Shown here: one piece after another, positions 8,108 through 10,887 of the stretch | Numbering within the stretch: position 1 is the first letter of the stretch | Layout of the letters: each line of letters begins with the position of its first letter | Origin: Fibrobacterota bacterium | GTDB taxonomy: Bacteria; Fibrobacterota; Chitinivibrionia; Chitinivibrionales; FEN-1185 | Direction of reading: 5' to 3' | Assembly (NCBI GenBank): GCA_003165595.1 | Contig: PLWQ01000005.1 | Location: forward strand, 65,204-79,026 | DNA length: 13,823 nt | Made by a program: the position numbers and the translations under genes | Notes under the pieces: generated by a model | Told to the model about the DNA's origin: nothing | The model's input: only the letters and a program-made list of their open reading frames with translations | The model's database searches: none

Positions 8108-8334
8108 GAATACGCCGGCCGCTGCTAGAGTCTTTCCCCGAACTAGTCAAATGCGATTCTGGGTTGCGCACCCTAGAAATACCCGGTCAGAGTCTCAACG
8201 GTATATATTCACAGCCTGGCTGCCAAACCTGTTTTGGATTGCGGAATTCAGATTGAAATGTAGATTGCCGCCAATGTTGCTTCCGCAGAAGCGATAGGCG
8301 GTCTTGACAATTGTGGCAAAAGATCCTCTGCCCA
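8108..8334. other. Gene-free stretch after glgA
   Basis: I see no supported gene on either strand; the short open frames lack ribosome sites and recognisable products. A hairpin at 8158-8177 pairs TCT-GGGT with ACCC-t-AGA around a 5-nt loop but has no T run, so it is at best a weak end signal for glgA. A TTGACA at 8304-8309 has no acceptable -10 box 16-18 nt downstream. The box TTGTGGCA at 8311-8318 recurs upstream of the second copy of the structured repeat (10648-10655). Confidence 0.6.
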
Positions 8335-8471
8335 GCGCCAGGCTGGACCGAAAGGTGCGCTGGAGTGCAGGGCCGGCCGACCCCGGCCGCAGGCCGTTAG
8401 GGCGGTCCGGCACCGAGGCCGACCGGCCGAGCCTGCAGGGAGAGCCGCCGCTGCAAAGCAGCGGGGCGCCC
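8335..8471 (+). repeat. Structured repeat, copy A (candidate non-coding RNA)
   Basis: This 137-nt GC-rich element matches copy B at 10704-10831. Shared blocks in order include GCGCCAGG, GCCGGCCGACCC, AGGGCGG, CCGGCACCGAGGC, GCCGAGCCTG and GGCGCCC. It folds as a closed multi-branched structure: GCGC(C) at 8335-8339 pairs with GGCGC at 8465-8469; CAGGC 8339-8343 with GCCTG 8431-8435; hairpin TGCGC 8356-8360 / GTGCA 8365-8369 with a TGGA loop; a long arm GCCGG 8372-8376 / CCGGC 8407-8411 continuing CC/GG and CCC/GGG to an apical CGGCC-GCA-GGCCG; hairpin GGCC 8417-8420 / GGCC 8425-8428; and a 3' hairpin CCGCTGC-AAA-GCAGCGG. It ends 44 nt from the aspS stop. Strand is assigned from one G-U pair that forms only in plus-strand RNA. 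It matches no RNA family I know. Confidence 0.7.
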
Positions 8472-8489
8472 AACAGACTACTCTCTGTT
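8472..8489. other. Perfect 6-bp hairpin beside copy A
   Basis: AACAGA (8472-8477) pairs with TCTGTT (8484-8489) around a 6-nt loop, directly after copy A and next to a run of six A (8490-8495 on plus). On the plus strand it is followed by A, not T, so it does not terminate plus transcripts. Confidence 0.4.
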
Positions 8490-8515
8490 AAAAAATTCTC
8501 AAGCACGCCTTCTTG
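8490..8515 (-). terminator. Weak terminator candidate for aspS
   Basis: Reading the minus strand just after the aspS stop, CAAG (8515-8512) pairs with CTTG (8503-8500) around 8 nt, followed by AGAA and then TTTTTT (8495-8490). The T run is good but the stem is only 4 bp, so termination may instead depend on the repeat structure that follows. Confidence 0.35.
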
Positions 8516-10285
8516 CTAGCTGTGCTCAACCACCTTTATATGCAACTCCCGAAGCTGCTTCTGAGTCACCGTTGCCGGCGCGTTCATCATGAGGTCCTGG
8601 GCGCGCTGGTTCATGGGAAAAGCGATGATCTCGCGGATATTCTGCTCGTCGGCGAGCAGCATCACGATGCGGTCGACGCCGGGTGCGATGCCGCCGTGAG
8701 GCGGCGCGCCCAGCTTGAACGCGTTGATCATGGCGCCGAACCGTTCGTCAACGGTTTCCTTCGGGTAGCCCGCAATCTCGAAGGCGCGGTACATGATTTC
8801 CGGCTGGTGGTTGCGGATGGCGCCGCTGGAGAGCTCGATGCCGTTGCACACGATGTCGTACTGGTATGCCAATATGTCGAGCGGTTGCTTGGAGCTCAGC
8901 GCCTCCATGCCGCCCTGCGGCATGGAAAAGGGATTGTGTGAAAATGCCACGCACTTGTTTTCCTCGTCCCATTCGTACATGGGAAAATCCACGATCCAGC
9001 AGAACTTGAAGGCGTCAGGGTCGATCATGCCCAAGTCTTTGCCGAGCTTGACGCGGAGTTCCCCGGACAATTTGTTGGTGGTTTGCGGCGTGTCACAGAT
9101 GAAGAAGACCACGTCGCCCAGGCCCACGCCGCACAGCGCCTCAATGCTCTTCACTTCTTCCGGCGTAAGGAATTTGAGGAGCGGTCCCTTGACGCCCGCG
9201 TCGAGCCACTGCAAATAGGCAAGCCCTTTCGCGCCGATGGTCGTTGCGTGATCCACCATTTTGTCGAAGAAGTTCCTTGGGTTTTTGGCAATACCCTTCA
9301 CCGGGATCGCCCGCACAACGGCGCCCGTTTCGATAGCGCCGCGGAACACCTTGAATCCCGACTGTGCAAAGATTGCGGTGCAGTCGCGCATCTCGATCGG
9401 AATACGCAGGTCGGGCTTGTCGGTGCCGTACTTGATCATCGATTCCCTGAAGGGTATCCGGACGAACGGCGGCGCGTCCATTGTCTTCTTTGAAAACTCG
9501 GCAAAAATGCCATGAATCAGTGATTCAACGACTTTGAAGATATCGTCCTGGTTTACAAAAGACATTTCGATGTCGAGCTGATAGAATTCGCCGGGTGAAC
9601 GGTCGGCCCGAGCGTCCTCGTCACGGAAGCAGGGCGCAATCTGGAAATAGCGGTCGAACCCGGATATCATGAGCAGCTGCTTGAACTGCTGCGGCGCCTG
9701 CGGCAGCGCGTAAAACTTTCCCGGGTGGATGCGCGACGGCACAAGGTAATCGCGCGCGCCTTCGGGCGAGGAGCTGGTAAGGATGGGCGTCTGGAATTCC
9801 TTGAATCCCAGGTCCCACATCCTTCTCCGCATGCTGGCGATAACGTCACTGCGCAGCATGATGTTCTGATGCAGTTTACTCCTGCGAAGGTCGAGGAACC
9901 GGTACGTGAGCCGCAGGTCTTCGGGAGCATCGTCCTCCGGAAACACGTTGAGGGGCAGCGCGTCGCACGTGCCCAGCACTTCAAAGGAATCGGCAACGAC
10001 CTCTATTTCGCCCGTGGGAAGCTTGGGATTGACGTTCTCTTCGGACCGGAATGCCACTTTCCCGCCGAAGCGGATCACGGTTTCCTTGGGGAGCCGCGAA
10101 ACTTCGTCGAGAAAAGCGACGGCCGGATACACCACCACCTGGGTGAGCCCGTAGTTGTCCCGCAAATCAATAAAGAGCACGCCGCCGTGATCGCGGCGCG
10201 AATGAATCCAGCCGGCAAGGTAGACGTTCTTGTCGATGTCGGTTTTCCGCAGTTCACTACAGGTGTGGGTTCGGTACTGCTGCAT
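8516..10285 (-). CDS. aspS: Aspartyl-tRNA synthetase, bacterial type, probably non-discriminating
   Basis: AspRS, a dimeric class II enzyme, charges tRNA-Asp with aspartate using ATP. The 589-residue length matches bacterial AspRS. Residues 1-110 form the OB-fold anticodon-binding domain ([19 protein letters not shown], 25-43). The catalytic core starts near 125 ([10 protein letters not shown]), with [17 protein letters not shown] (164-180), motif 2 at [21 protein letters not shown] (from 220) and motif 3 at [12 protein letters not shown] (532-543). The bacterial GAD insertion spans about 285-425. His33 in RRDHGG matches the residue typical of enzymes that also charge tRNA-Asn, whereas E. coli has Leu there. 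The frame can start at a TTG at 10333, but homology ([12 protein letters not shown]) and the promoter at 10336-10367 favour ATG 10285. It is monocistronic, between two gene-free stretches. Confidence 0.97.
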
Positions 10286-10335
10286 TGCAAAGGCCTTTTC
10301 TGCTGAGGGTTTCGGGGTAAACGGGACAATCAAAA

Positions 10336-10367
10336 ATAATATTGCCGCGGGGTGTTAGTTTTGTCAA
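10336..10367 (-). promoter_or_regulatory. Candidate sigma70 promoter for aspS
   Basis: On the minus strand a perfect TTGACA (10367-10362) is followed after 18 nt by AATATT (10343-10338), or after 20 nt by TATTAT (10341-10336), in an AT-rich patch. Transcription from here would start near 10330 and give a leader of about 45 nt before the ATG at 10285. I see no T-box motif in it. Confidence 0.6.
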
Positions 10368-10394
10368 TAATTGGAGTGTTCATGTCTCTGGTAA

Positions 10395-10590
10395 TTGGTC
10401 CTTTGGGTGGGGACACCACTGCGTGGTTTCCCCTGGGGTGCAGCTTCCTCCCGCCGAAGAATCGCCGGGAGGCGAGCTGCACCCACACCCTTTCCAGCGG
10501 AAACATGCGCCAAGCGTACCGCTTGCGCGGTGCGCGCGTCACGTTTCCGCAACGCCTTCATGTCGGAATGCCGCTTCGCGGCGGTAAAAA
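10395..10590. other. Gene-free block of dense, nested hairpins upstream of aspS
   Basis: No supported gene lies between the aspS promoter and copy B. The core is an almost perfect hairpin, 10436-10484: GGGTGCAGCT pairs with AGCTGCACCC, CCTCCCG with CGGGAGG, and CGA with TCG around an AGAA loop. Outside it GTTTCC-c-CTGG (10426-10436) pairs with CCAG-c-GGAAAC (10494-10504). The same GGAAAC, as GCGGAAAC 10497-10504, can instead pair perfectly with GTTTCCGC 10543-10550, enclosing a 9-bp hairpin (10507-10528). Further hairpins are CCAC-TGC-GTGG (10416-10426) and GCCGC-TTC-GCGGC (10570-10582). No T run follows on plus. Open frames cross the block on both strands, but none has a ribosome site and their products look like translated repeats. 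Confidence 0.5.
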
Positions 10591-10703
10591 AGCAATGGCA
10601 CTGGCAGCGCCGATTCTTGCCCGCGGGCCGCAATTTACGAAGGATATTTGTGGCAGAAAGCGGTCGCATTCGGTAAGAGCAAGGGATGCAGGCGGAGTTT
10701 CCT

Positions 10704-10831
10704 GCGCCAGGGGCGACGGAAGGTGTGCCGGAGCACAGTGCCGGCCGACCCAGCCGACAGGCAGAGGGCGGACCGGCACCGAGGCGAATAGCCGAGCCTG
10801 GAGAAGAACCGGTGCCGCAAGGCAGGCGCCC
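10704..10831 (+). repeat. Structured repeat, copy B (candidate non-coding RNA)
   Basis: This is the second copy of the element at 8335-8471, in the same orientation, 128 nt. Matching pairings are GCGCC 10704-10708 / GGCGC 10825-10829; CCAGG 10707-10711 / CCTGG 10797-10801; hairpin TGTGC 10724-10728 / GCACA 10733-10737 with a CGGA loop; long arm GTGCCGG 10738-10744 / CCGGCAC 10773-10779 with apical GCC-GACA-GGC; hairpin GGC 10783-10785 / GCC 10791-10793; and a 3' hairpin TGCC-GCAA-GGCA with a GNRA-type loop. Compared with copy A, the third pair of the TGTGC/GCACA arm changes from T-A to C-G on both sides. Upstream it has the shared TTGTGGCA box (10648-10655) plus an extra hairpin GCAGG/CCTGC (10688-10705). 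It ends 56 nt from the tatD stop. Confidence 0.7.
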
Positions 10832-10887
10832 GGATTTAAGGAGGTTACGAGACAATCTCAACTTCCCCCGCCAATATCTTGAATTTG

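What the first reader, a model, noticed from the sequence alone, without database searches (positions are those of the whole stretch)
8335..10831. Duplicated structured element flanking aspS, with a compensatory base-pair change: candidate new non-coding RNA
Copies at 8335-8471 and 10704-10831 share a closed, multi-branched fold (outer stem, second stem, three inner arms, 3' hairpin). In the short arm, TGTGC/GCACA in copy B is TGCGC/GTGCA in copy A: one pair changed from T-A to C-G on both sides and one from G-C to G-U, so pairing is kept. The G-U pair forms only in plus-strand RNA, which hints at plus-strand function. Loops and spacers vary in length while stems persist. Both copies lie in gene-free DNA and both are preceded by a TTGTGGCA box. 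I cannot match it to tmRNA, RNase P, SRP, 6S or a riboswitch I know. It might be a dispersed genomic repeat family, a regulatory RNA or a minimal mobile element.
Basis: partly seen in the sequence, partly recalled or inferred. Interest (0 to 1): 0.75.

Follow-up and report, generated by a model that had tools for sequence, protein, structure and literature searches.

The report
Folded mobile repeat from IS1182 lineage
Two folded DNA stretches beside a bacterial gene belong to a previously uncatalogued family of more than a hundred dispersed, precisely folding repeats in an uncultured Fibrobacterota bacterium, and the same fold sits at the ends of one lineage of jumping genes (IS1182 type), so it looks like part of a mobile element rather than an ordinary regulatory RNA.

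Summary
A covariance model finds at least 139 copies in this genome, at least 55 in a congener, and fewer in ten more of 167 Fibrobacterota genomes; Rfam has no match. In 125 distinct copies 94.7% of paired positions pair, with 690 two-sided changes against 208 in shuffles. No copy overlaps a predicted gene, and orientation to neighbouring genes is nearly random, so it is not a riboswitch-like leader. At the aspS locus the congener lacks copy A and has a different, opposite-facing element where copy B lies, so copies turn over. Copy B is the right half of a ~470-bp element whose left half is a second covarying module; its ends resemble the terminal repeats of an IS1182-family insertion sequence. 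In this genome remnants of that transposase lie between two such modules; in another family of the order an intact 469-aa IS1182 transposase is followed, 19 nt after its stop codon, by the module. Best reading: GC-rich MITE-like elements from an IS1182 lineage that carries a folded end module. How the TIR-less A type moves, whether the fold acts as RNA, and what it does remain inferred.

The parts
8304..8334 (+). A-type conserved 5' flank, TTGACAATTGTGGCA...CTCTGCCCA; TTGAC starts 29-31 nt before the fold in 38 of 93 A-type copies; promoter-like -35 without a good -10
   Evidence: flank logo and TTGAC positions; alignment
8335..8471 (+). Copy A: 137-nt folded core module, solo (A) type. P1 8335-8339 with 8465-8469, P2/P3 stem, arms P4, P5, P6, 3' hairpin P7
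   Evidence: (130.3 bits)
10405..10595 (-). Left end module 'X' of the element that contains copy B; read on the - strand it is three hairpins ending ...GGTGTCCCCACCC, i.e. GGGTGGGGACACC at 10405-10417 as the terminal-repeat-like outer end
   Evidence: repeat hits; 18-sequence alignment with 31 of 46 pairs doubly changed; same X+B arrangement in L164
10704..10831 (+). Copy B: 128-nt core module, B type (the type found as the right end of the IS1182 remnant elements)
   Evidence: (83.8 bits)
10832..10873 (+). B-type tail: short hairpin (GAGGTT...AATCTC) and outer end ACTTCCCCCGCCA, matching the terminal repeat TGGTGGGGGAAGT of the IS remnants in inverse orientation

Best explanation
Copies A and B are members of a dispersed family of GC-rich, non-coding, MITE-like mobile elements. 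Each full element (about 0.4-0.6 kb) consists of two different folded end modules whose 3' ends point outward, with a short spacer between them. One IS1182-family insertion-sequence lineage carries the core as its right end, just after the transposase stop codon, and in this genome on both ends. Elements such as the one containing copy B are deletion derivatives that kept the ends and lost the transposase, and were probably moved in trans by that transposase. Shown: copy number, fold, covariation, intergenic placement, turnover between congeners, terminal-repeat-like ends of the B/II/X/Y modules, and core modules next to transposases of one IS1182 clade. Inferred: mobilisation in trans; that the A type (which lacks a right terminal repeat) spread the same way; and that the fold works in outgoing transcripts of the element, as a stable 3' structure that shields or ends element transcripts, rather than in DNA.
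For: >=139 copies at E<1e-4 in the own genome, >=55 in the congener, 12 of 167 Fibrobacterota genomes. Covariation; even closest copies change stems 3-7 times less than loops. 0 of 125 copies overlap a predicted gene. Same-locus comparison: glgA-aspS-tatD are syntenic in the congener, copy A is absent and copy B is replaced by an opposite-facing element of another subtype; a second site is empty in one genome and filled in the other. Divergent core pairs with inverse ends TGGTGGGGGAAGT. IS1182-type transposase remnants lie between a type-II and a B-type core in G000. Intact 469-aa IS1182 transposase (NF033551, 347.5 bits, cut-off 270) with the core 19 nt after its stop in G032, and three of three G032 cores beside such a transposase or its remnant. 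The G000 remnants are closest to exactly these transposases (48-62% identity; those without a core <=37%).
Against: A-type copies, the majority, lack the right terminal repeat, and no target-site duplication could be identified. The congener has >=55 copies but no IS1182 transposase domain. Most IS1182 transposases in the phylum, and three tested on plasmids, have no core beside them, so the link is to one lineage only. Stem conservation in nearly every copy would also fit individually functional copies.
Confidence: 0.62

Rival explanations
1. A multicopy family of host small RNAs: each copy is its own transcription unit (TTGACA element about 30 nt upstream, T-rich tract after the 3' hairpin) and acts in trans; it merely hitch-hikes on mobile DNA.
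For: Stems conserved in almost every copy, also in the congener; TTGAC at about -30 in 38 of 93 A-type copies and a T-rich 3' tail, strongest in the congener; one conserved U.G pair on this strand.
Against: No convincing -10 box; upstream flank differs between subfamilies; copies are not positionally conserved; cores sit inside IS1182 ends; G-U and A-C are nearly balanced elsewhere.
Confidence: 0.18
2. A single-stranded-DNA element of the REP/BIME or IS200/IS605 kind, spread by a Y1 (HUH) transposase that reads hairpins in ssDNA.
For: Hairpin-rich, intergenic, often in divergent pairs; pairing is strictly Watson-Crick with few wobbles; one intact Y1_Tnp gene is in the genome.
Against: The Y1 gene has no core within 1.5 kb; cores are several times longer than REPs and are linked to a DDE transposase instead.
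Confidence: 0.07
3. A cis-regulatory RNA (riboswitch or leader) of neighbouring genes.
For: Conserved multi-branched RNA-like fold.
Against: A-type copies lie in the orientation of the next gene 41 times and against it 55 times, and avoid rather than favour divergent promoters; no shared neighbour; not conserved at aspS.
Confidence: 0.03

Closest known systems
MITEs in general, and BOX / Correia / ERIC elements (PMC3049150, PMC10969869)
   Same: Short, non-coding, intergenic, high copy number (Correia >120, ERIC up to hundreds), stable folds in transcripts, partly with terminal repeats of a resident IS; BOX is also modular.
   Different: GC-rich (core mostly 70-80% G+C; MITEs are typically AT-rich), each end is a multi-branched module with strong compensatory change, several interchangeable end modules; related by sequence to none that I know.
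IS1182-family insertion sequences (NF033551)
   Same: The linked transposase is a full member; inverted terminal repeats GAAAGAGGGAACAGAGGCTGTCTCAAAAC / GAAGAGGGTGTTCAGACTGTCTCAAAAC read here in G032.
   Different: A ~147-nt covarying folded module between stop codon and right end; not found beside other IS1182 transposases tested.
IS110/IS1111 seekRNA or bridge-RNA elements (PMC11187229)
   Same: An IS with a structured non-coding region next to the transposase gene.
   Different: Those use a DEDD transposase and an RNA that reads the target; here the transposase is DDE (IS1182) and no guide function was tested.
REP/BIME repeats with RAYT
   Same: Many intergenic hairpin repeats, often in inverse pairs.
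   Different: Size, multi-branched fold, no linked Y1 gene.

Membership tests
MITE | Short, non-coding, dispersed in many copies | tested here: met
   >=139 copies, no overlap with predicted genes
MITE | Terminal inverted repeats | tested here: inconclusive
   Present in II/B, X and Y ends; absent at the right end of A-type copies
MITE | Target-site duplication | tested here: inconclusive
   Paired ends listed, none evident; congener sites too diverged
MITE | Ends shared with an autonomous IS of the host | tested here: inconclusive
   II/B ends enclose IS1182 remnants; intact copy with the core only in another family of the order (G032); not shown for the A type
IS1182 family (linked transposase) | NF033551 above cut-off, DDE_Tnp_1_6 and DUF772 domains | tested here: met
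   347.5 bits vs 270; Pfam
Any Rfam RNA family | Covariance-model match at gathering score | tested here: not met
   No match in the window; none to the core up to E=5 in four loci
IS110/IS1111 seekRNA element | DEDD transposase | tested here: not met
   Transposase is IS1182-family DDE
IS110/IS1111 seekRNA element | RNA stretches that match target and donor | not tested
   Complete left ends and insertion sites of the intact element not available (contig break)
REP/RAYT | Y1 transposase gene flanked by the repeats | tested here: not met
   No core near the Y1 gene at C33:25060
Riboswitch / cis leader | Consistent sense orientation upstream of genes | tested here: not met
   41 sense vs 55 antisense to the next gene
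Transcribed small RNA | A discrete strand-specific transcript | not testable with these tools
   No RNA-seq data available

The most novel reading that the evidence does not exclude
A DDE insertion-sequence lineage (IS1182) encodes a structured RNA at its end that its transposase needs in order to work or to choose its target, as the seekRNA does for IS110/IS1111, and the >100 dispersed copies are this RNA's mobile derivatives.
Probability: 0.1. Interest if true: 0.92.

Novelty: new variant of a known kind. Interest (0 to 1): 0.6.

Why it matters
Bacterial MITE-like repeats are usually described as simple hairpins. Here one family keeps a seven-helix fold by compensatory change across more than a hundred dispersed copies and several bacterial families, and the fold is physically tied to one DDE transposase lineage. 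That makes a testable case for selection on a single-stranded structure inside a DDE transposon, where none is required by textbook transposition, and gives a ready covariance model for finding more.

Tried and rejected
Rfam at gathering score and with relaxed E-values: nothing. Plasmid and phage blastn: none. A motif scan of viral contigs gave 33 matches, about what chance predicts, and none contained the fold. Reverse transcriptase as mover: only one in the genome, beside a restriction gene. Y1 transposase: not linked. An extra 5' hairpin before the core: no better than shuffled flanks in this genome, weak in the congener. Integron attC: the outer stem has GTT/AAC in half of the copies only, GCC/GGC in the others; rejected on established knowledge of attC. 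G-U asymmetry as proof of the RNA strand: does not hold. Two searches outside the phylum failed for want of a handle, so absence elsewhere is not tested. One region call was mistyped (28), one read ran past the locus end (72), and one script broke off after giving the G001 numbers (79).

Full report
What was checked. The genome is a 5.39-Mb MAG in 42 contigs; the nearest named aspS is 70% identical, from a Chitinivibrionales MAG. I fetched these with flanks, aligned them and found a shared core of about 130-140 nt beginning GCGCC or GCGTT and ending GGCGCCC or AACGCCC. The outer stem covaries: GCGCC goes with GGCGC, GCGTT with AACGC.

Structure. From 22 copies of one class I wrote the consensus by hand and tested it: P1 closes the element; P2 and P3 form a stem with an internal loop rich in G and A; P4, P5 and P6 branch from P3; P7 is a 3' hairpin. 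Model R1 finds at least 139 places below E=1e-4 in the own genome, with only 150 candidates scored, so 139 is a lower bound. On 125 distinct copies 94.7% of cells pair (shuffled 81.5%), 690 cells have two-sided changes (shuffled 208, sd 23), the covariation score is 0.328 against 0.122 shuffled and at most 0.057 when the partner strand is slid. A second model across genomes repeats this: 427 two-sided cells against 117. These alignments are fitted to the model, which favours the structure; but the covariation is already in plain MAFFT alignments (13 of 28 pairs). Between each copy and its closest relative, loops differ at 8.0, 14.6 and 21.0% of sites and stems at 1.2, 4.7 and 6.4% in successive divergence bins. 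In the congener the figures are 13.1% and 5.7%.

Spread. R1 and R2 find the family in the congener G001 (at least 55 copies), and R2 in 12 of 167 Fibrobacterota genomes: G003 at least 17, G022 at least 13, G028 five, G032 and G165 three, others fewer, G020 only marginal. Sequences show the same frame, with P4 or P5 shortened or replaced in some lineages. 155 genomes give nothing at E<=0.01, which argues that false matches are few. Rfam gives no match.

Context. With a simple hexamer gene finder that recovers the expected genes of the window, none of 125 copies overlaps a predicted gene. The gene beyond the 3' end is close (median 64 nt in the A type), the one before the 5' end farther (280 nt). 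Orientation to neighbours is near random and convergent gaps are used more than divergent ones. This is the pattern of tolerated insertions, not of leaders.

The larger unit. Many copies have further repeated sequence upstream. Three recurrent left modules (X, Y, Z) or another core in opposite orientation occupy this place. X is itself a covarying set of hairpins, 31 of 46 pairs doubly changed in 18 sequences, whose outer end is TGGTGGGGAAACC. Copy B has X on its left (window 10405-10595) and the tail ...ACTTCCCCCGCCA on its right (to 10873), so B belongs to an element of about 470 bp, like L164. Copy A has only the A-type 5' flank TTGACAATTGTGGCA...CTCTGCCCA and no recognisable left module.

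Link to an IS. In G000 several divergent pairs combine a type-II core and a B-type core with inverse ends TGGTGGGGGAAGT. In two long pairs the interval translates into broken pieces of a DDE transposase, and a search with its C-terminal piece finds four places, all within such pairs. A phylum-wide search for the transposase domain followed by R2 shows cores beside the transposases of G032 and the remnants of G000, a very weak one in G022, and none beside the others. In G032 an open 469-codon gene, assigned to the IS1182 family by NCBIfam, ends 19 nt before the core; beyond it comes a terminal repeat, GTTTTGAGACAGTCTGAACACCCTCTTC, with its inverse counterpart upstream of the gene. All three strong G032 cores lie in this position. 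The G000 remnants are most like these G032 proteins (48% and 62%), then the G022 remnant, and at most 37% like the rest. So the core travels with one IS1182 clade.

Turnover. In the congener glgA, aspS and tatD are syntenic, with 75%, 81% and 67% DNA identity. Copy A has no counterpart there. Between aspS and tatD the congener has one core of the GCGTT type on the opposite strand, ending upstream of aspS. Another intergenic stretch is 138 bp without a core in G000 and 467 bp with one in G001. In other shared stretches the two genomes carry different modules.

Mechanism. The most economical account is a MITE-like family: ends of an IS1182 lineage that lost the gene and were moved in trans, with end modules exchanged between elements. 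For the II/B and X/B elements this rests on ends and remnants. For the A type it is inference: no right terminal repeat, no target duplication. What the fold does is open. All modules point outward, so they are in sense in transcripts that leave the element; I think a stable 3' structure that ends or shields such transcripts is most likely. The conserved TTGAC at about -30 and the T-rich tail after the core, strongest in the congener, fit a transcript of the core itself, but no -10 box is evident. The near balance of G-U and A-C outside one pair (61 to 52) means that action as single-stranded DNA is not excluded.

Comparison with known kinds. The family works like MITEs such as BOX, Correia and ERIC, which are intergenic, multicopy and folded (PMC3049150, PMC10969869). 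It differs by G+C content, by the multi-branched covarying fold and by the exchangeable end modules. The presence of a structured non-coding end beside a transposase recalls the seekRNA of IS110/IS1111 (PMC11187229), but that system's DEDD transposase is not met here and guide matching was not tested.

Noticed in passing
L109, L121, L123, L125, L145, L160, L166, L178 (P5 and P7 loops): Small hairpins of the form TGTAGAGGCGCA...TGCGCCTCTACA are inserted exactly in the apical loops of the fold, so another palindromic repeat uses these loops as landing sites without breaking the structure.
   Followed up: partly
L092:3137-3215 and the 3' flanks in L117, L146, L147, L163, L179: The last 14 nt of the core (GCAGCGGGGCGCCC) recur once or twice downstream at a spacing of 33-36 nt, each followed by a tail like AnATTCTTATCTTGAT; a sign of repeated insertion at, or replacement of, older copies.
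   Followed up: no
window 10405-10595 (minus strand) and about 30 further places: Module X, a second covarying structured end module with an ACCA-like outer end; Y-like ends in G032 (L288) start with bases matching that genome's own terminal repeat.
   Followed up: partly
L196 (G001), about 440-520 nt right of the core: A mini core with P3-P6 deleted (GCGTTAGGAAGGAGGGCCGACCCCG...GGGGAAACGCCC) still keeps P1, P2 and P7.
   Followed up: no
L205 (G000 C29:18058): The only reverse transcriptase of the genome (517-aa open frame) lies directly after a gene that looks like a type I restriction subunit; possibly a defence RT.
   Followed up: no
L191 8003-8188 and 8862-9077 (G001): Intergenic gaps of about 200 bp with imperfect inverse repeats ('...caccacagggacacggagagcacagag...'), absent from the congener, look like yet another repeat family.
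   Followed up: no
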